In this document: in pieces, positions 11,042 to 20,292 of the stretch
Numbering within the stretch: position 1 is the stretch's first letter
Layout of the letters: each line of letters starts with the position of its first letter
Source: a virus
Virus record (IMG/VR): IMGVR_UViG_3300030116_001298
Location: 1-30,218 of that record
Direction: 5' to 3' (one strand)
DNA length: 30,218 nt
Made by a program: the position numbers and the translations under genes
Notes under the pieces: model-generated
What the model saw: the letters and a program-made list of their open reading frames with translations, nothing else
Databases searched by the model: none
Told to the model about the DNA's origin: nothing

Positions 11042-11196
11042 TAGAATATATACTAGATATGCTAGAAATAGCAAAGAAAGAAAAACAAATAGGTGCATAT
11101 ACATATATAGCACTAGGTAAAAACCATTTACCAACAACAATAAAGGAAGGATATAAACAAGTAAAATTAAACATATGTCTGTCAAGAAAACAATAG
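11038..11196 (+). CDS. Small hypothetical protein (52 aa) before the tape measure
   Basis: This frame overlaps the large tail gene's stop (ATGA) and the tape-measure start by 22 bp, filling an otherwise empty 133-bp gap. The product is soluble and helical with an Ile/Tyr-rich middle (GAYTYIALGKNHLPTTIKEG). The coupled overlaps support a real gene; no family recognised. Confidence 0.55.
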   Translation: MIEYILDMLEIAKKEKQIGAYTYIALGKNHLPTTIKEGYKQVKLNICLSRKQ

Positions 11197-12908
11197 AAAT
11201 AGAAGCTATTGCAAAAGATGCAGTAAAGAAAATAGAAGAATTAACTGGGCAAGTAGAAAACCTAGAAGCACAGCTTAAAGATACCAACAAAACAAGTAAA
11301 GAAGTAGCAAAAGGTGTAGGTGCTATAGGTACTACACTAAAAGCAGCAGGTATTGGTTTAATTGTAGCAGCATTTGCAAAGCTAACAGAAGTGTTTAATG
11401 AAAACCAAAAGGTAACAAACATATTTAACACAGCTTTTGAAGCACTTTCTTTAGCATTTAATGATTTTTTCAATTTTCTAGATAATAATGTAGGTACAGT
11501 TATAGGTTATTTTGAAGGTATATTTAGTAACCCCCAACAAGCATTAAGTGATTTTGGTACTTCTATAAAAAATAATCTTATAGAAAGGTTTAATAGTTTT
11601 TTAGATACACTTGGCTTTCTAGCTAGTGCAGTAAAAAAAGTATTTAGTGGTGATTTTGCAGGTGCATTAGATGATGTAAAAAGTGCAGGTAAAGAAAGTT
11701 TAGATGTACTTACAGGTGTAGATAACACATTTGATAAATCTGTAGAAACTGTTAAAAATGCAACTAATGCTATTGTAGATTATAGTAAAGAAACCATAAA
11801 AACAGCAGCAAATACAGTAGAATTAAATAGAAAGGCAGATGTAAGTATAGCTAAAAACAGGATTATATTAGAACAAAAAGATAGGGAAGCAGAAAAACTA
11901 AGACAGGTCAGAGATGATGAAAGCAAAACCATAGAAGAAAGGATTGAAGCCAATAATAAACTAGCACTTGTTTTAGATGAGCAAGAAAAATTAATGTTAA
12001 AAAATGCAGATGCAGTTTTAGCAGCAGCACAAGCACAATTTGATAAAAATGGTAATGATGAAAACCAAATAGCATTACTTGAAGCACAAGCAGAAAGGGA
12101 AGGTATACTAGCACAGGTAGAAGGTTTTAGGTCAGAGCAGTTAATAAATGTAAATTCTTTACTTAGAGAACAAGAAGATTTAAAAAAGGAAGCACAAGAA
12201 AAAGATTTAGAAAGAGAAGAATTTTTAAAAGAGTTTCAAGATCAAAAAGCACTTACTGAAAAAGAAAAGAAGGAACTAGAGTTACAAGAAAAAGAAGCAG
12301 AAGCATTAAAAGAATTAGAATTACTTGAAGGTACTGAAGCACAAAAACAACAAGTAAGGGAATACTTTGATGGTGAGCAAGAAAAACTAGAGCAAGAAGA
12401 ATTAAAAAGAAAAGATGCACTAGAAAAACAAAAGTTAGCAATAACAGCCAACACACTAGGTTCACTTGCAGACTTACTAGGTAGAAATAGTGCAGCAGGT
12501 AAGGCAGCAGCTATAGCACAAGCCATTATAAATTCTTATTTAGGTTTTACAGAAGTATTATCTAGTGAAAGTGTAATACCTGAACCTTTTGGTAGTGTGC
12601 AAAAAGCAATAAGTGCAGCTTCTATTCTTGCAAGTGGTTTACAAACTGTAAAACAAATAACAAGTGTACAAACACCTAATCTTGGTGGGGGTGGTATGAT
12701 GTCAGGGGGTGCTAGAGGTTCTACAGCAGCACCAACACCTGCTGCACCACCTGCATTTAATGTAGTAGGTGCTTCAGATACTAACCAACTTGCAGAAGCA
12801 ATAAGTGGTAAAGAACAAAAACCAGTAAAAGCATTTGTAGTTAGTAGTGATGTAAGTAATGCACAAAGTTTAGATAGGAATATAATAGAAACAGCTAGTA
12901 TTGGGTAA
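11175..12908 (+). CDS. Tape measure protein
   Basis: A 577-aa Lys/Glu/Ala-rich protein with long coiled coils (about 1-45 and 215-420). A hydrophobic segment, LKAAGIGLIVAAFAKLTEV (about 55-73), could insert in the membrane during DNA ejection. The C-terminus is Ala/Gly/Pro-rich (LGGGGMMSGG, APTPAAPPAF). With about 1.5 angstroms of tail per residue, the length suggests a tail near 85 nm. It is the last gene of the tail block, followed by a late-promoter motif. Confidence 0.85.
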   Translation: MSVKKTIEIEAIAKDAVKKIEELTGQVENLEAQLKDTNKTSKEVAKGVGAIGTTLKAAGIGLIVAAFAKLTEVFNENQKVTNIFNTAFEALSLAFNDFFNFLDNNVGTVIGYFEGIFSNPQQALSDFGTSIKNNLIERFNSFLDTLGFLASAVKKVFSGDFAGALDDVKSAGKESLDVLTGVDNTFDKSVETVKNATNAIVDYSKETIKTAANTVELNRKADVSIAKNRIILEQKDREAEKLRQVRDDESKTIEERIEANNKLALVLDEQEKLMLKNADAVLAAAQAQFDKNGNDENQIALLEAQAEREGILAQVEGFRSEQLINVNSLLREQEDLKKEAQEKDLEREEFLKEFQDQKALTEKEKKELELQEKEAEALKELELLEGTEAQKQQVREYFDGEQEKLEQEELKRKDALEKQKLAITANTLGSLADLLGRNSAAGKAAAIAQAIINSYLGFTEVLSSESVIPEPFGSVQKAISAASILASGLQTVKQITSVQTPNLGGGGMMSGGARGSTAAPTPAAPPAFNVVGASDTNQLAEAISGKEQKPVKAFVVSSDVSNAQSLDRNIIETASIG

Positions 12909-12937: not shown

Positions 12938-14272
12938 ATGGACATAATAGAACTTTTTATAGATGAAGAAGATGAAGTAAGTGGTATTGATGCAGTAAGT
13001 TTAGTAGAAAACCCTGCAATAGAAGAAGATTTTATAGCACTTAAATCATTAGAATATAAATTTGCAGAAGTAGACAAAGAAAAAAGGATAATAATGGGTG
13101 CAGCACTTGTACCTAACAAACCTATTTTAAGAACTAAAAATGATGAACCTTACTATATATATTTTAGTAGGGAAACAGTAAGAAAAGCAAGTGAATTATT
13201 TTTTATAAGGGGTAATGCTAGTAAATCTACACTAGAACATGCACAGCCACTACAGGGTTTAACAGCAGTTGAAACTTGGATAGTAGAAGATTTAAAGAAA
13301 GACAAAAGTAGATTGTACAATATGGAAGTACCACTTGGTACATGGATGTTATCAATGAAGGTTTTGAATGATGATATTTGGAATAACTATGTAAAAACTG
13401 GTAAGGTAAAAGGATTTAGTATAGAAGGGTACTTTGCAGACAAATTAGAAAGACCAAATGAACCAAACAAATTACAAGAAATACAAGAAGAAGAAGCAGA
13501 TTACCTACTAAACCACCTAAAAGACATACTAGAAGATAAACAAGTAGAACTAGAAAGCTATAGTGACTACCCTGATGCAGTAAAAAACAATGCACAAAGG
13601 GGTATTGATCTAAATGAAAAAGTAAATAATAAGTGTGCAACCCAAGTAGGGAAAGTTAGGGCTTCACAATTAGCACAAGGCAAACCAATAACAGCAGAAA
13701 CTATAAAAAGAATGTACAGCTACCTATCTAGGGCAGGTGAATACTATGATGAAGGTAACACAGAAGCATGTGGTACTATTAGTTATTTACTTTGGGGTGG
13801 TAAAGCAGGTTTAAGGTGGAGTGAAAGCAAACTAAAAGAACTTGAAATGTTGGCTGAAGTTGGTAAAAGGGGTGGTATAAAGAAAAGCCCAAAAGCACCA
13901 AAGTCAGATACACCAAACCCCAACCCAAAAGGCAAGGGTACAGCAAAAGGTGATGCTTCTACAAGTAGGGGTGCAAAGGTATCTAAACAAGATGAAGCTA
14001 CACTAAAGAAAAAAGCAGAAGAATTTAATGAAAGGTACAAGAAAAAACTAGGGTATGGTGCTAATGTAGGTACACTTAAAGCTGTATTTCAAAGAGGTTT
14101 AGGTGCATTTAATGTTTCACATAGCCCAAGAGTTAAAAGTGCTTCACAATGGTCATTTGCTAGGGTAAATGCTTTTTTATATTTACTAAAAAATGGTAGA
14201 CCACAAAACCCAAAGTATACTGGTGACTATGATTTACTACCTGCTAAACACCCAAAGAGTAGTAAAAAATGA
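12938..14272 (+). CDS. XkdF-type prohead protease with two fused C-terminal domains
   Basis: A 444-aa protein. Residues 1-170 match the XkdF putative serine protease pattern: GIDAVSLVENPAIEEDFIAL, then His101 in STLEHA and Ser161 in KGFSIEGYF as the likely catalytic pair. A middle domain (about 205-305) contains CATQVGKVRASQLAQGKPI and YLLWGGKAGLRWSESKL, as in small basic domains of other phage proteins. After a Pro/Lys/Gly linker, residues about 370-444 carry FQRGLGAFNVSHSPRVKS and ARVNAFLYLLKNGRPQNPKY, a DUF5824-like module. It should cut scaffold and capsid precursors; the extra domains are probably released or stay in the capsid. Confidence 0.75.
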   Translation: MDIIELFIDEEDEVSGIDAVSLVENPAIEEDFIALKSLEYKFAEVDKEKRIIMGAALVPNKPILRTKNDEPYYIYFSRETVRKASELFFIRGNASKSTLEHAQPLQGLTAVETWIVEDLKKDKSRLYNMEVPLGTWMLSMKVLNDDIWNNYVKTGKVKGFSIEGYFADKLERPNEPNKLQEIQEEEADYLLNHLKDILEDKQVELESYSDYPDAVKNNAQRGIDLNEKVNNKCATQVGKVRASQLAQGKPITAETIKRMYSYLSRAGEYYDEGNTEACGTISYLLWGGKAGLRWSESKLKELEMLAEVGKRGGIKKSPKAPKSDTPNPNPKGKGTAKGDASTSRGAKVSKQDEATLKKKAEEFNERYKKKLGYGANVGTLKAVFQRGLGAFNVSHSPRVKSASQWSFARVNAFLYLLKNGRPQNPKYTGDYDLLPAKHPKSSKK

Positions 14273-14418
14273 AAACATTATACATAAAAGAGTACAAACC
14301 TTGTAACACAGATGGTAAAAGGGCTTGTTTATGTCCTGATGGTAAAACTTATTCAAGAAAATGCTGTGATGGCAGTTTTCAGGCACAAGGTATTGGTTCA
14401 GTAACAGGCACAAGTTAA
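14269..14418 (+). CDS. Cys-rich miniprotein (49 aa)
   Basis: A 49-aa frame starting with an ATGA overlap at the protease stop. Five Cys lie in a compact pattern: C-N-T-D-G-K-R-A-C-L-C-P-D-G-K, then KCCDGSFQAQGIG. The CPDGK...KCCDGSFQAQGIG core resembles small uncharacterised proteins I associate with structural regions of Bacteroidota phages. A zinc site or disulfide knot is plausible. The short length and strong pattern support a real gene. Confidence 0.7.
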   Translation: MKTLYIKEYKPCNTDGKRACLCPDGKTYSRKCCDGSFQAQGIGSVTGTS

Positions 14419-14424
14419 AAACAT

Positions 14425-14450
14425 AACAAATAATAAAAAAACATATTGTA
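14425..14450 (+). promoter_or_regulatory. Late-promoter motif copy 4 (paralogue array)
   Basis: AACAAA starts at 14425, TATTGTA has its ATTG at 14445, and the ATG is at 14456. Spacings are 20 and 11 nt. Confidence 0.75.
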
Positions 14451-14455
14451 ATAAC

Positions 14456-14881
14456 ATGGATACTATAGAAAAAAGGATACAAGCATACTTAAAAAAAGTA
14501 GGTCAAACAAACAAAGTAAACCTAGAAAAAGTACAGTTAAGTATGGTAAGCAGGTTAGATAAAAAGGCAGATGAATTAGCAGCAGCACAAAAGGCATTAA
14601 AAAAATTTGAAAGTGACATAGAAGCAGGTGCAGTAAAAAAAATTAGGGCAGATGAAGAACTAGCTGACATAGCACAAAAAGCAAGGCAAGAAATCAAAGA
14701 TTCTAGATTTGAAATAAAAGAAGGAAAAGATTTTTTAAGAGAAGCTAAAGCTATGGCAAAAGAGTTAGGTGTAGACCCTAATAAAATAGAAAAATATGAC
14801 CTGTTAGAAATTGAAGTAGAAGATACTGAAACACAAATAGGTGAAGTACAAGCTATGCTTAAAACCTTTAATGTAAAATAA
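14456..14881 (+). CDS. IEKRIQAYL paralogue 1 (141 aa)
   Basis: The first of three tandem genes whose products share the N-terminus MD/NxIEKRIQAYLxK. Here it is MDTIEKRIQAYLKKVGQTNK. The rest is a Lys/Glu/Ala-rich helix (coiled coil, about 20-120) that shows little similarity to the other two. It lies between the protease and scaffold genes and behind its own late-promoter motif. A capsid-directed internal protein or assembly factor is an inference from position and the shared leader. Confidence 0.75.
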   Translation: MDTIEKRIQAYLKKVGQTNKVNLEKVQLSMVSRLDKKADELAAAQKALKKFESDIEAGAVKKIRADEELADIAQKARQEIKDSRFEIKEGKDFLREAKAMAKELGVDPNKIEKYDLLEIEVEDTETQIGEVQAMLKTFNVK

Positions 14882-14882
14882 T

Positions 14883-15239
14883 ATGGATAGTATAGAAAAA
14901 AGAATACAGGCATACCTTAGTAAATTACCCAAACAAAAAGTTAAATTATCTAAAATAAATGATATACAGCAAAGAATAAATGATGGTTTTGCTTTAGAAG
15001 ATGTTATTAGAGATAAAATAGAAAAAGCACAGAAATTTATGACACAAGCAAGGGATATTTTAGGATTTAATTTTAGAGATGCTTATTTAGATGCAGATGA
15101 ATTATTGGAAGAATTAGAGAATGAAGTTAAAGAACTAGGTATAGCAGAGCCACCAAAAGTAAAAGTTTTAAAATCAGAGTTAAACAAACTAAAAAGTTTA
15201 GAAACTAAACTAGAAATGGAAATAAAACAAGTAGGGTAA
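14883..15239 (+). CDS. IEKRIQAYL paralogue 2 (118 aa)
   Basis: Shares MDSIEKRIQAYLSKLPKQKV with paralogue 3 and, over the first dozen residues, with paralogue 1. The remainder is helical, with an acidic stretch (DADELLEELENEVKELG) and a Lys-rich C-terminal coiled coil. It starts one base after the preceding stop and ends one base before the next gene, so the three are a translationally coupled block. Confidence 0.75.
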   Translation: MDSIEKRIQAYLSKLPKQKVKLSKINDIQQRINDGFALEDVIRDKIEKAQKFMTQARDILGFNFRDAYLDADELLEELENEVKELGIAEPPKVKVLKSELNKLKSLETKLEMEIKQVG

Positions 15240-15240
15240 G

Positions 15241-15618
15241 ATGAACACAATAGAAAAGAGAATACAAGCATACTTAAGTAAAATACCAAAACAAAAAGTA
15301 GAATTATCTGATCTACAAGAATTTTTAAAGTATTACATAGGAGTTGAAACATTTGGTAAAAACATTGATATAGATGAAAAAGAAATATCTAAACATTTAG
15401 AAAAAACTGAAACCTTAAAAAGAAGTTTAAGAGTTGATTTAGAGGATATGCAAGAAGATATGGAAAGGGTAGCTGTAGGGATTAAAAGAGCAGAAACAGC
15501 AGCTAAATCATTAGGTGTAAACCCAAAAGAAATACCTAATTACAACAAAGCAGTAAATGCCATGAAATATGGTACAAAACAAGTAGCAAAAGGTAAACAA
15601 CTTTTAAAGAGTATTTAA
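15241..15618 (+). CDS. IEKRIQAYL paralogue 3 (125 aa)
   Basis: N-terminus MNTIEKRIQAYLSKIPKQKV is nearly the same as paralogue 2; the body differs (KHLEKTETLKRSLRVDLEDM and a basic C-terminus). Predicted all-helical. It ends before the late-promoter motif of the scaffold gene. The conserved IPKQKVE/LPKQKVK junction might be a maturation site for the nearby XkdF-type protease, which is untested. Confidence 0.75.
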   Translation: MNTIEKRIQAYLSKIPKQKVELSDLQEFLKYYIGVETFGKNIDIDEKEISKHLEKTETLKRSLRVDLEDMQEDMERVAVGIKRAETAAKSLGVNPKEIPNYNKAVNAMKYGTKQVAKGKQLLKSI

Positions 15619-15655: not shown

Positions 15656-16300
15656 ATGAAGGCAGATAATATGTTAGGAAAAATCAAAGAATTGTTAAGT
15701 ATTGATACTGAAACAAAAGAAGTAAAACTAGAACAAGCTACACTTGAAAATGGTACTGTAATAGAAAGTGAAAACTTTGAAGCAGGTAGTGAAGTGTTTA
15801 TAGTAACACAAGATGAATTAGAACAAAAAATACCTTTACCAGTTGGTGATTATACTTTAGAAGATGGTGAAAAATTAATAGTAAAAGAAGAAGGCATTAT
15901 AGCTTCTATTGGTGCAGAAGAAGAAAAAGAAGAAGAACCTAAAGAAGAAGCTAGTGAAGAAAATTTAAATACTGATAATATGGATAATAAAGAAGTTGTA
16001 CAAGAAGTACAAGAAAATCTTGAAGAAGATAAGAAAGAAGAAATGCAGTATGCAACTAAGGAAGAACTAGCTTCACTTCAAGATGAAATAAAAGAGATCA
16101 AAGGAATGATTGAAAAAATGGGCAAAAAAGAAGAAGAAATGAGTGCTGAAAATACACCCATTGAAGAAAAAGAAGAACTTTCAGCAGTTGAAAAGGTAAA
16201 ACATAACCCTGAAGAAGAAGTAAAAACTGAACCTGTATTTATGAGCAGAAGAGGTGAAACAACTTTTGATAGAGTTATGAGAAGAATAAATAATATATAA
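15656..16300 (+). CDS. Probable capsid scaffold protein
   Basis: A 214-aa, extremely acidic protein (long Glu-rich tracts at about 87-200, such as EEEKEEEPKEEASEEN) with a short helical coiled coil (KEELASLQDEIKEIKGMIEK). It ends in a basic helix, TTFDRVMRRINNI, which is the kind of C-terminal capsid-binding segment seen in scaffolds of other phages. It lies immediately upstream of the major capsid gene and downstream of the protease. No sequence family was recognised, so the call is from composition and position. Confidence 0.7.
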   Translation: MKADNMLGKIKELLSIDTETKEVKLEQATLENGTVIESENFEAGSEVFIVTQDELEQKIPLPVGDYTLEDGEKLIVKEEGIIASIGAEEEKEEEPKEEASEENLNTDNMDNKEVVQEVQENLEEDKKEEMQYATKEELASLQDEIKEIKGMIEKMGKKEEEMSAENTPIEEKEELSAVEKVKHNPEEEVKTEPVFMSRRGETTFDRVMRRINNI

Positions 16301-16311
16301 TAATTTAAAAA

Positions 16312-17232
16312 ATGGCAACAAGTATTACAACCAGTTATGCAGGTGAATTTGCAGGAAAATATATTCAAGCAGCCCTGTTAAGTGGTAAAACTTTAGGTGA
16401 AGAAACAATAACAATTTTACCTAATATAGTGCATAAGCAAGTTATGCAAAAAGTAAGCAGTAATGACATTGTAAAAAATGGTGCATGTGATTATTCAGAT
16501 AGTTCAACATTAACATTATCTGAAAGAACACTAACACTAGAAGATTTTATGGTAAATGTTACTGTATGTAAAAAAGATTTCTTAAACACATGGCAAGCAG
16601 CAGAAGTTGGGCTAGGTGGTTTAGGTAGAGAAATACCAAAAAGCTTTGCAGATTTTGTTATAGGGCATTTCTCAGCTAAAGTGGCTCAAAGAATGGAAAC
16701 TAATATATGGGCAGGAACAAATGCTACAGCAGGTCAATTTGATGGATTTGGTACACTTCTTGCTGCTGATAGTGATGTAAATGATGTTACTGGTACAACT
16801 GTAACTTCCTCTAATGTTATTACAGAATTAGGTAAAGTTGCAGATGCAATTCCTAGTGCTGTTTATGGGCAGGAAGATACAACTATATGGGTTTCAACAA
16901 ATGTTTACAGAAGCTATATTAGAGCATTAGGTGGTTTTGGTGCTTCAGGATTAGGTGCAGCAGGTTATGAGGATAGAGGAAATAACCAAGCTATTACACC
17001 TGCATTTTTTGATGGTATTAAAATTTCACATGCACAAGGTTTAGGTTCAGATGAAATGGTAGCAGGACAAAAAAGTAACTTTTTCTTTGGTACTTCTTTA
17101 CTGAATGACTTGAATGAAATTAAGGTAATTGACATGAGTGACATTGATGGTTCACAAAATGTTAGATTCATAATGAGATTTCAAGCAGGTGTTCAGTTTG
17201 GTGTTGGTGGTGACTGTGTCCTATACACCTAG
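16312..17232 (+). CDS. Major capsid protein
   Basis: A 306-aa protein with the length and mixed alpha/beta pattern of an HK97-fold capsid protein. The N-terminus is MATSITTSYAGEFAGKYIQA; QRMETNIWAG (about 127-136) is the usual long-helix region and PSAVYGQEDTTIWVSTNVYR (about 182-201) the A-domain strand region. The C-terminus, RFIMRFQAGVQFGVGGDCVLY, is a typical late beta strand. It follows the scaffold by 11 bp, and a terminator follows at 17253. Confidence 0.85.
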   Translation: MATSITTSYAGEFAGKYIQAALLSGKTLGEETITILPNIVHKQVMQKVSSNDIVKNGACDYSDSSTLTLSERTLTLEDFMVNVTVCKKDFLNTWQAAEVGLGGLGREIPKSFADFVIGHFSAKVAQRMETNIWAGTNATAGQFDGFGTLLAADSDVNDVTGTTVTSSNVITELGKVADAIPSAVYGQEDTTIWVSTNVYRSYIRALGGFGASGLGAAGYEDRGNNQAITPAFFDGIKISHAQGLGSDEMVAGQKSNFFFGTSLLNDLNEIKVIDMSDIDGSQNVRFIMRFQAGVQFGVGGDCVLYT

Positions 17233-18282: not shown

Positions 18283-20292
18283 ATGGATAACATACACATA
18301 GTAAATTTATCTACCTACAATAAGCCCAAAGTAGTAGAAGATAAAAGAAAAGAATGGGTAGCTTATGGTGATGATAACAATTACTACCAGTACCTTATAG
18401 ACCTTTTTACAAGTTCTACAACTAACAATGCAGTAATAAATGGTATTAGTAATATGATTTATGGTAAGGGCTTAGATGCACTAGATAGTAGTACAAAGAC
18501 AGATGAATATGCAGCACTAAGAAGTATTTTTAGTAATGAGTGTTTAAAAAAAATAGCACTAGATTTAAAACTACTTGGTGAAGCATGTTTCCAAGTTTTA
18601 TACCAAAATGGCAAGGTAATAAAAGCAGAGCATTTTCCAAGACAAACACTAAGACCTGAAAAGATGAATGAGGAAGGTGATATAGAAGCATACTATTATG
18701 CACCTGACTGGGAAAAAGTAAAACAAAATACCAAACTAAAAAGAATTGCAAACTTTGGTTATGGTAATGGTAAAGAACCTGAAATAAAAGTAGTAAAAAA
18801 ATATGTGTCAGGTTATGACTATATCTGTCCTGTAGATTATCAGGGTGCATTGGCTTACTGTGAACTAGAAAGTGAAATTTCTGACTTCCTTATAAATGAT
18901 GTACAATGTAATTTTAGTGGTACTAAAGTAGTAAACTTTAACAATGGTGTACCTGATAGAGAAAAACAGCTACAAATTAAAAGTGAGGTCATGAATAAAC
19001 TTACAGGTAGCAGAGGTGAAAAGGTAATTGTAGCCTTTAATAACAATGCAGAAAGTAAAACTACTGTTGATGATATACCACTAGATGATGCACCTGCACA
19101 TTATGAGTATTTAGCTAATGAATGTATTAGAAAAATAATTATGGGTCATAGGGTAACAAGCCCACTACTATTAGGTGTAAGGGATGGCAATAGTGGTTTA
19201 GGTAACAATGCAGATGAAATTAAAACTGCTAGTTTATTGTTTAATAACATAACTATAAAACCTTACCAAGATCAAATAATAGAGTGTATAAACCAAATTT
19301 TAGCAGTTAATGAAATAAGTTTAAAACTATATTTTAGAACCCTGCAACCTTTAGAATTTATTGATACAGATAATGCAGTAACACAAGAAGCTAAAGAAGA
19401 AGAAACTGGTGTAAAGTTAGCCAGTCAGGTAGTAAATAAAGATTTTGCTATTATAGATGATAGGTTAGCATATAGCACACCTGAAAAAGCTGAAGAAATG
19501 GCAAAGAATATAGGGTGTGAAGGTATCCATGTACATGAATATGAAGGGCAAGAATGGTACATGCCTTGTGAATTTCATAATAAAGAAGATTTAAAAAAAT
19601 ACAAATGCCCTAAAGGGTACAAGAAAAACTACAAAACACACAGATGTGAAAAGATGCAAGAAGAAGAACTTGCAAAAGATGAAAGACCTTTTTTAAGTGA
19701 TGATGATGGTGATGAATTATTTACATTAATAGACCAGTTAGGTGAAATAGAAGATTTAGAAAATTATGAGTTACTAGATACAGATACTACAGAAGATGAA
19801 CCTGAAGATTTTGATGTAGAAAATTATTTAAATGGTTTAAAGTTATCAGCAAAACAAGATTCTAGCCAAGATAATGATTTATTTAAGGTTAGATACAAGT
19901 ATGTAAAAGGCACAAAAAGACAAGCAAAAGGTGAAACTAGACCTTTCTGTAGAAGAATGCTAAGTACAGGTAAGCTATATAGAAAAGAAGATATTGCACA
20001 AATGAGTTTTAGGGGTGTAAACAAGCAGCATGGTCATAAGGGTCAAAACTACTCTTTATTTAAGTGGCAAGGTGGGGTAAATTGTCACCACATTTGGGAA
20101 AGAAGAATATATAAAAAGAAATTAAAAAAGGATGGCACACCCTATAAAGGTAATGCACTTGCAAATACAAAGTTTGTAAATGTAAATCAAGCTGTAAAAC
20201 AAGGTTTTAAACTACCCAAAAACCCCAAAGAAGTAGCACAAGCAAATATAACTAGAGGTGACAAAGGACACCACCCAAACTATAAAGGATAA
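18283..20292 (+). CDS. Portal protein with long C-terminal extension
   Basis: A 669-aa protein. The first ~400 residues have the portal layout: YLIDLFTSSTTNNAVINGIS near the start, then LGEACFQVLYQNGK (about 102-115) and AEHFPRQTLRPEKM. Portals are usually 400-500 aa; here the rest is extra. It contains CEGIHVHEYEGQEWYMPCEF (from about 412) and KCPKGYKKNYKTHRCEKM, which may form a metal site, then an acidic stretch. The last ~120 residues carry FCRRMLSTGKLYRKEDI and NCHHIWERRIYKKK. The extension could be a Mu F-like or minor-head domain fused to the portal. The portal forms the dodecameric DNA gate. Confidence 0.8.
   Translation: MDNIHIVNLSTYNKPKVVEDKRKEWVAYGDDNNYYQYLIDLFTSSTTNNAVINGISNMIYGKGLDALDSSTKTDEYAALRSIFSNECLKKIALDLKLLGEACFQVLYQNGKVIKAEHFPRQTLRPEKMNEEGDIEAYYYAPDWEKVKQNTKLKRIANFGYGNGKEPEIKVVKKYVSGYDYICPVDYQGALAYCELESEISDFLINDVQCNFSGTKVVNFNNGVPDREKQLQIKSEVMNKLTGSRGEKVIVAFNNNAESKTTVDDIPLDDAPAHYEYLANECIRKIIMGHRVTSPLLLGVRDGNSGLGNNADEIKTASLLFNNITIKPYQDQIIECINQILAVNEISLKLYFRTLQPLEFIDTDNAVTQEAKEEETGVKLASQVVNKDFAIIDDRLAYSTPEKAEEMAKNIGCEGIHVHEYEGQEWYMPCEFHNKEDLKKYKCPKGYKKNYKTHRCEKMQEEELAKDERPFLSDDDGDELFTLIDQLGEIEDLENYELLDTDTTEDEPEDFDVENYLNGLKLSAKQDSSQDNDLFKVRYKYVKGTKRQAKGETRPFCRRMLSTGKLYRKEDIAQMSFRGVNKQHGHKGQNYSLFKWQGGVNCHHIWERRIYKKKLKKDGTPYKGNALANTKFVNVNQAVKQGFKLPKNPKEVAQANITRGDKGHHPNYKG

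What the first reader, a model, noticed from the sequence alone, without database searches (positions are those of the whole stretch)
14456..15618. Three tandem paralogues with a shared N-terminus beside the prohead protease
The first 12-20 residues (MDxIEKRIQAYLxK) are nearly identical, but the bodies diverge. This resembles capsid targeting sequences of T4 internal proteins, which the prohead protease removes. Here the genes lie between an XkdF-type protease and the scaffold and have their own late-promoter motif. They may be proteins packed in the head and injected into the host.
Basis: inference. Interest (0 to 1): 0.8.

Follow-up and report, generated by a model that had tools for sequence, protein, structure and literature searches.

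The report
Phage head-cargo proteins with scaffold-mimic leaders
Next to its capsid genes this Bacteroidota-type phage carries three small helical proteins whose shared start looks like a loading tag copied from the tail end of the phage's own scaffold protein, followed by a probable cut site, so they are probably cargo packed into the phage head and may act in the next host.

Summary
The three genes exist where stated. They share 9 consecutive residues (IEKRIQAYL) plus KVxLS, and a KxLGxxP turn near the C-terminus. They belong to a large unnamed family: 171 genes in 108 of 396 related virus loci, one to four per phage, nearly all beside the scaffold and major capsid genes. Leaders are short amphipathic helices followed by KV[E]L[SAG]. 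Bodies are hypervariable: 34 unrelated groups among phages with capsid proteins at least 90% identical. Leaders and bodies recombine at the KVEL junction.

New: leaders resemble the scaffold's C-terminal helix (TTLDRVLxKIxN), far above helical controls. They match their own phage's scaffold tail better than other phages' (p about 4e-4); no other tested segment stays significant after correction. Best reading: the leader mimics the scaffold's coat-binding tail, loads the protein into the prohead, and the XkdF-type protease cuts at KVxL[SAG], leaving the body as head cargo. This works like T4 internal proteins, with no detected homology.

Packaging is well supported by comparison, cleavage moderately, injection or counter-defence only by analogy. 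The window's own leader-tail match is weak; its case rests on family membership. The cassette is absent from its closest relatives, so it is dispensable.

The parts
14425..14449 (+). promoter-like element AACAAA-N13-TATTGT, ending 6 nt before the first cassette gene
   Evidence: 6 copies in the window with identical spacing versus 0.74 expected; 5 of 6 lie directly before an ATG (protease, p1, scaffold, 17939, 20889)
14456..14881 (+). p1, accessory (cargo) protein 1, 141 aa
   Evidence: ORF; leader, site and KELGV motif shared with the family
14456..14497 (+). p1 leader helix MDTIEKRIQAYLKK
   Evidence: AF2 of the paralogue p3 predicts a separate N-terminal helix
14528..14542 (+). p1 KVQLS, putative prohead-protease site / leader-body junction
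   Evidence: motif discovery in the family; recombination junction in relatives
14756..14779 (+). p1 AKELGVDP turn of the helical hairpin body
14883..15239 (+). p2, accessory (cargo) protein 2, 118 aa
   Evidence: ORF; body 89% identical to L001 gene 1 and 74% to L083 gene 1
14883..14924 (+). p2 leader helix MDSIEKRIQAYLSK
14937..14951 (+). p2 KVKLS, putative site
15129..15152 (+). p2 KELGIAEP turn
15241..15618 (+). p3, accessory (cargo) protein 3, 125 aa
   Evidence: ORF; AF2 mean pLDDT 90.9: helix 3-14, loop 15-21, helix 22-91, helix 101-124
15241..15282 (+). p3 leader helix MNTIEKRIQAYLSK
15295..15309 (+). p3 KVELS, putative site, in the linker where the long helix begins
15505..15525 (+). 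p3 KSLGVNP turn
12938..14272 (+). XkdF-type prohead protease with C-terminal additions (DUF5824-like), candidate protease for the sites
   Evidence: PF14550 E 1.3e-11 above its cut-off; DUF5824 weak
15656..16300 (+). scaffold-like protein, 214 aa
   Evidence: homologous to the C-terminal half of the P12024L protease-scaffold fusion (phrog_24921); AF2: N-helix, beta domain, long helix, low-confidence linker, terminal helix
16175..16183 (+). scaffold ELS, possible counterpart site in the conserved ELSxPAAxPIKHNPE region of scaffolds (window: EELSAVEKVKHNPE)
   Evidence: alignment A6; V.L[SAG] enriched in scaffolds, 35 versus 7.9 in shuffles
16259..16297 (+). scaffold C-terminal helix TTFDRVMRRINNI, putative coat-binding tail that the leaders mimic
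16312..17232 (+). major capsid protein, the presumed docking partner
   Evidence: phrog_11320 E 1.1e-48, weak hit to a virion structural protein family; used to find relatives

Best explanation
p1-p3 are head-cargo proteins made of two modules. Module 1 is an N-terminal amphipathic helix that imitates the C-terminal, coat-binding helix of the phage's own scaffold protein, so the protein is loaded into the growing prohead as scaffold is. Module 2 is a polymorphic helical-hairpin body. The modules join at K-V-x-L-[S/A/G], where the XkdF-type protease probably cuts during maturation, as it probably also cuts the scaffold between its body and tail (ELSxPAA). The body then stays in the head with the DNA and probably enters the next host, where its diversity suggests a role against host factors. 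Shown by sequence: family, leader conservation, body hypervariability, modular exchange at the junction, resemblance of leader to scaffold tail, dispensability. Inferred: docking on the inner capsid surface, cleavage, injection, counter-defence. My likelihoods: loading into the prohead through the leader 0.8; cleavage at KVxL[SAG] 0.65; injected effector or counter-defence role 0.4.
For: Family: 171 leader-bearing genes in 108 of 396 loci, 106 non-redundant, 85 between protease and scaffold, 61 between scaffold and MCP, 15 after MCP. The junction motif [TS]QKVEL[SAG] was found by unsupervised EM (log-likelihood 293 versus 134-147 for shuffles); of 119 ORFs picked by leader alone, 109 carry it. 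Tail mimicry: a profile of scaffold C-termini scores leaders at median +1.0 versus -11 to -15 for accessory bodies, tape-measure windows, other N-termini and shuffled leaders (Mann-Whitney 3e-10 or less against these; 7 of 11 leader classes in the top 10% of controls, p 2e-5). Leaders match their own phage's tail better than others' (15.6 versus 12.3, p 3.5e-4, 19 distinct tails); the nine other scaffold, protease and MCP segments give p 0.047-0.93. Examples: L068 tail NILEQVYKFK / leader SILEQVYGVE; L164 tail TTKDRVYNKI / leader ETRKRIYNKL; L081 tail TTQDIVMAKLF / leader STEKIVMNSLF. Modularity: 21 pairs with the same body under different leaders, up to 100% over 122 aa, DNA identity starting at the junction. 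L063 has an accessory-like body fused to the protease through STEKVDLA. MCPs of L116 and L133 carry the extra residues SNHKVDL just before the usual ATT... start. Hypervariability: 81 genes, 34 body groups in 51 phages with MCP at least 90% identical to that of L142. Dispensable: absent in relatives L002-L004, L006, L007 with about 92% identical MCP. AF2 puts the site in a linker between leader helix and body. In P22, removing the last 11 scaffold residues abolishes coat binding (PMC9965877).
Against: No virion proteomics or cleavage data were found for any member, and no record in the phage collection encodes a detectable relative of p2 or of the L120 member. In the window itself the leader-tail match is weak (own tail ranks 5th of 19), so its case rests on family membership. 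Without the two best examples the own-tail signal falls to p 0.024, and profile-profile comparison alone is weak (E 0.004 over 13 columns). KVxL[SAG] sits at the start of a long helix and is followed by a frequent DD, so it could be a helix-capping motif. V.L[SAG] in portal and protease lies largely at positions shared by homology, so those counts are not independent evidence. No function of any body is known.
Confidence: 0.6

Rival explanations
1. They are auxiliary scaffold or prohead-core proteins, like T4 gp67/gp68 or a size-determining accessory scaffold. They bind the coat through the leader and help assembly, then are degraded or leave; nothing is injected.
For: Same neighbourhood, same tail-like helix, coiled-coil bodies; 1-4 copies beside the scaffold.
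Against: Absent in close relatives with about 92% identical MCP and not found in 212 of 299 loci that hold protease and MCP. Bodies vary without detectable similarity between phages with at least 90% identical MCP, which is unexpected for a structural role in the same shell.
Confidence: 0.17
2. Leader-dependent packaging is right but KVxL[SAG] is not a protease site: it is the N-cap of the body helix and a homology stretch at which modules recombine. The proteins stay whole in the head.
For: AF2 starts the long helix at the motif; Asp is frequent 3-4 residues later; recombination junctions fall there.
Against: The motif is often doubled (KVELAEQKVELS); V.L[SAG] is enriched in scaffolds in other contexts; it joins protease to accessory body in L063 and precedes the usual MCP start in L116/L133; a protease is encoded alongside.
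Confidence: 0.14
3. Outer capsid decoration proteins, or genes with no role in the head that share a leader because of recent duplication.
For: Other genes inserted at the same place look like beta-rich decoration proteins.
Against: Those genes lack leader and motif. Leader codons differ synonymously. A tail-mimicking leader would place the protein inside the shell, where scaffold binds.
Confidence: 0.05

Closest known systems
T4 internal proteins (IPI, IPII, IPIII) with capsid targeting sequence and gp21 cleavage
   Same: A short conserved N-terminal leader on otherwise highly diverse small proteins; core/scaffold-directed loading; a prohead protease in the same gene set; polymorphic (T4 facts: PMC3012670, PMC5694885).
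   Different: No sequence homology detected. The motif is KVxL[SAG] with near-invariant Leu, not a motif ending in Glu. Leaders resemble the scaffold's own C-terminal tail. Different phage type (30-kb contig, XkdF-type protease). IPI* is a beta/alpha fold; these are helical hairpins.
SPN3US gp53/gp54 and phiKZ gp93 (giant-phage internal head proteins)
   Same: Paralogues with an identical N-terminal 15 residues that contain protease motifs (PMC5694885).
   Different: Proteins of jumbo myophages, AxE/SxE motifs; no scaffold-tail resemblance reported in the passages read.
P1 DarB N-terminal capsid targeting signal
   Same: An N-terminal signal directs an anti-restriction protein, and a foreign reporter, into the capsid (PMC9024508).
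   Different: A 250-kDa protein of a phage thought to lack a separate scaffold; signal not reported in the passages read to be related to a coat-binding tail.
P22 scaffold C-terminal coat-binding helices (and engineered P22 cargo loading)
   Same: A C-terminal helical element anchors scaffold to the inner coat surface (PMC9965877); P22 capsids are used to encapsulate engineered cargo (PMC9962691 listed; loading by scaffold fusion is own knowledge).
   Different: Engineered cargo there; here a natural tag with the helix moved to the N-terminus, followed by a putative cleavage site.
Herpesvirus scaffold/protease M-site (own knowledge)
   Same: A protease site separates scaffold body from its C-terminal capsid-binding tail.
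   Different: Different family; no separate polymorphic cargo proteins using a copy of the tail.

Membership tests
T4-type internal proteins with capsid targeting sequence | short conserved N-terminal leader shared by dissimilar small proteins | tested here: met
T4-type internal proteins with capsid targeting sequence | encoded with a prohead protease and scaffold | tested here: met
   PF14550 protease and scaffold-like gene flank the cassette
T4-type internal proteins with capsid targeting sequence | dispensable and polymorphic among close relatives | tested here: met
T4-type internal proteins with capsid targeting sequence | leader ends in a protease motif with Glu at P1, as in T4, phiKZ and SPN3US | tested here: not met
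   near-invariant residue is Leu; the Glu position is Gln in p1 and Lys in p2
T4-type internal proteins with capsid targeting sequence | sequence homology to T4 internal proteins | tested here: not met
   no significant PHROG or Pfam match for p1-p3; weak scattered PHROG hits only across 33 members
T4-type internal proteins with capsid targeting sequence | leader removed by the protease in the prohead | not testable with these tools
   needs N-terminal proteomics
T4-type internal proteins with capsid targeting sequence | present in the virion and injected | not testable with these tools
   no isolate and no proteomics found
Scaffold-tail mimic (proposed) | leader resembles scaffold C-terminal helix more than helical controls | tested here: met
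Scaffold-tail mimic (proposed) | leader matches own phage's tail better than other phages' tails | tested here: met
   across the family p 3.5e-4; weak for the window itself (rank 5 of 19)
Scaffold-tail mimic (proposed) | leader and tail bind the same MCP site | not testable with these tools
   needs binding data or a complex model
Capsid decoration proteins | beta-rich fold like the other genes inserted at this place | tested here: not met
   AF2 gives an all-helical hairpin for p3

The most novel reading that the evidence does not exclude
A natural cargo-loading system widespread in Bacteroidota siphophages: the coat-binding tail of the scaffold has been copied to the N-terminus of a hypervariable set of small proteins, joined through a protease site at which leaders and cargo bodies recombine, so that each phage carries one to four interchangeable head-delivered effectors, probably against host defences.
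Probability: 0.4. Interest if true: 0.85.

Novelty: new variant of a known kind. Interest (0 to 1): 0.7.

Why it matters
How internal head proteins are selected for packaging is known mainly for T4, P1 and giant phages. Here sequence alone suggests a simple rule, that the leader copies the scaffold's coat-binding tail, which one binding or packaging experiment can test. If true, it gives a way to find head-delivered proteins in many uncultured marine and freshwater Bacteroidota phages, a large collection of candidate counter-defence proteins (34 unrelated bodies in one close clade), and a small natural tag for loading protein into phage capsids.

Tried and rejected
Single-protein Pfam and PHROG scans of p1-p3 gave only chance-level hits. 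PADLOC hits for 33 members are scattered coiled-coil matches (best 2.9e-5, one member), not taken as function. PDB sequence hits are mostly designed helical bundles, and Foldseek against PDB gave nothing below E 0.001. BFVD gave two 124-125-aa unnamed viral proteins at prob 1.00 but E above 0.001, probably family members. Searching the window's own record for more copies found only the three. Idea dropped: leader equals the scaffold N-terminal helix; the own-versus-other test is negative (p 0.68), although some lineages have tail-like scaffold N-termini. Idea dropped: cysteine depletion as a sign of ejection; scaffold, tape measure and other helical proteins are equally depleted. V.L[SAG] in portals and proteases was set aside because it sits mainly at homologous positions. 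Near-identity of L068 leader and tail DNA (17/20) was reached by shuffled sequence too. The family alignment was too divergent for a direct collection scan, so relatives were gathered through the MCP.

Full report
What is there. The window is a 30.2-kb virus record (GC 31%) with a late head module: tape measure 11175-12908, XkdF-type protease 12938-14272, a 49-aa Cys-rich protein 14269-14418, the three finding genes p1 14456-14881, p2 14883-15239 and p3 15241-15618, a scaffold-like gene 15656-16300, MCP 16312-17232 and portal 18283-20292. The three proteins share IEKRIQAYL and K14 exactly, then KV.LS, then K.LG..P. Codon comparison shows synonymous differences in the leader (3 synonymous, 2 non-synonymous in 12 codons for each pair of window genes), so this is not simply a fresh DNA repeat. 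The promoter claim is right: AACAAA-N13-TATTGT occurs six times against 0.74 expected, before the protease, p1, scaffold and two other genes, and not before p2 or p3.

Relatives. Scans with MCPs from the window and relatives, together with other scans, gave 396 usable loci, mostly uncultured viruses, plus four bacterial or archaeal MAG contigs (two titled Bacteroidia or Bacteroidota, one Psychroflexus, one Woesearchaeota bin) and the isolate Nonlabens phage P12024L. A Bacteroidota host is therefore likely (inference). The five closest relatives by MCP (about 92%) whose sequence covers the site pass directly from the 49-aa gene to the scaffold, without the cassette (L002-L004, L006, L007). In L001 and L083 three or two related genes are present.

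A family. Small extra genes beside the scaffold are mainly of two sorts: beta-type proteins without leader (MADKKISEL..., MSTTITTSNSV...), and helical proteins with an N-terminal amphipathic helix, KV[E]L[SAG], a long helix and a KELGV turn. In the enlarged set there are 171 such genes in 108 loci, 106 non-redundant at 60% identity; 65 loci have one, 26 two, 14 three, 3 four. They lie between protease and scaffold (85), scaffold and MCP (61), or after the MCP (15). Unsupervised motif discovery in the first 60 residues returns [TS]QKVEL[SAG], log-likelihood 293 against 134-147 for shuffled sequences. Because the enlarged set was selected by this motif, I also selected ORFs by leader alone: 109 of 119 have it, and most of the rest have KVEFS, KVELR or KVELT.

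Modularity and variability. Among 51 loci whose MCPs are at least 90% identical to that of L142, 81 accessory genes fall into 34 body groups with no BLAST similarity. 21 pairs have the same body under different leaders; in L223/L236 bodies are 100% identical over 122 residues and the upstream DNA is also the same, while the leader differs, and DNA identity begins at the codons of the KVEL junction. L063 carries an accessory-like body fused to the C-terminus of the protease through STEKVDLA. Leader and body are thus separable modules joined at the motif.

The leader imitates the scaffold tail. Scaffolds of this group end in a helix, consensus [ST]TLDRV[LFM].K[IL][NSF]; AF2 of the window scaffold predicts a terminal helix 203-213 behind a low-confidence linker that holds ELS. 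A profile of these tails scores the accessory leaders at median +1.0, against -11.3 for the helical accessory bodies, -11.5 for tape-measure windows, -12.5 for other N-termini and -12 for shuffled leaders. Counted by leader class, 7 of 11 lie in the top 10% of controls. Leaders match the tail of their own phage better than tails of other phages: first set p 5e-5 over 20 loci, larger set 15.6 versus 12.3, p 3.5e-4 over 19 distinct tails; nine other segments of scaffold, protease and MCP give p between 0.047 and 0.93, none significant after correction. Two cases carry much of this: L068, whose unusual tail NILEQVYKFK is met by the leader SILEQVYGVE, and L164 (TTKDRVYNKI / ETRKRIYNKL); without them p is 0.024. 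For the window the match is modest (TTFDRVMRRINNI / NTIEKRIQAYLSK, own tail rank 5 of 19). In P22 the last 11 residues of the scaffold are needed for coat binding and its C-terminal helices sit on the inner coat surface (PMC9965877), which is why I read the tail as coat-binding; that is an analogy, not a test.

Cleavage. The motif V.L[SAG] is enriched in scaffolds (35 versus 7.9 in composition-preserving shuffles) and not in MCP, tape measure or the 49-aa protein; it is slightly above shuffles in other proteins (z 2.2). The enrichment in portal and protease is mostly at homologous positions and is not counted. Two related MCPs begin MSNHKVDLATTVNITTTYAG where others begin MATT..IT; removing the residues up to the Leu would restore the usual start, which would place the cut after Leu. 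AF2 of p3 (pLDDT 90.9) shows leader helix 3-14, a loop, and a long helix from residue 22, so the site lies in a linker at the helix start. The position and the Asp residues after it would also fit a helix cap, so cleavage stays an inference (0.65).

Comparison with the known. [quoted passage not shown] P1 DarB has an N-terminal capsid signal (PMC9024508). SPN3US gp53/gp54 share an identical N-terminal 15 residues with protease motifs (PMC5694885). The present family works like these but is not shown to be a member of any: no homology detected, and the Glu-type motif is not met. What seems new is the leader as a likeness of the scaffold tail, the size and variability of the family, and its modular exchange. 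I found no paper on it in nine searches of the open library, which does not hold most subscription journals.

Verdict. Observation confirmed. Interpretation partly supported: prohead loading likely, cleavage probable, injection and counter-defence plausible by analogy only.

Noticed in passing
window 14269-14418: A 49-aa Cys-rich protein (CLCPDGKTYSRKCCDGS) overlaps the protease stop; homologues follow the protease in most relatives. Function unknown, no PHROG or Pfam match.
   Followed up: partly
window 1806, 12907, 14425, 15625, 17908, 20858 (+ strand): Invariantly spaced AACAAA-N13-TATTGT element; in 5 of 6 cases TATTGT starts about 12 nt before an ATG, which would make nearly leaderless late transcripts.
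   Followed up: partly
L063:5124-6122: Protease gene with an accessory-type helical body at its C-terminus behind STEKVDLA: a natural protease-cargo fusion.
   Followed up: partly
L085:179-1228 (P12024L gp01), L097, L099, L102, L103: Protease and scaffold fused in one ORF; in most a helix and a VKL[AG]-like motif lie near the junction (QVKLA, SVKLA, EVKLG).
   Followed up: partly
L116:1437 and L133: MCPs with a short N-terminal extension MSNHKVDL before the usual ATTVNITTTYAG.
   Followed up: partly
L064, L077, L010, L014 and others, between protease and scaffold: Alternative inserted genes with beta-rich, fibre- or decoration-like sequence (MADKKISEL...WFVIQ; MSTTITTSNSVLRARS...) at the same place.
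   Followed up: no
L137, L144, L155, L131, L040 scaffold N-termini: In some lineages the scaffold N-terminal helix (SILNRILAELA, TILNEILQKLS) also matches the C-terminal tail profile, as if the scaffold had the motif at both ends.
   Followed up: no
L090 (CP070803.1, Woesearchaeota MAG): A phage head module of this group lies in a contig binned as an archaeon, probably a binning or host-assignment curiosity.
   Followed up: no
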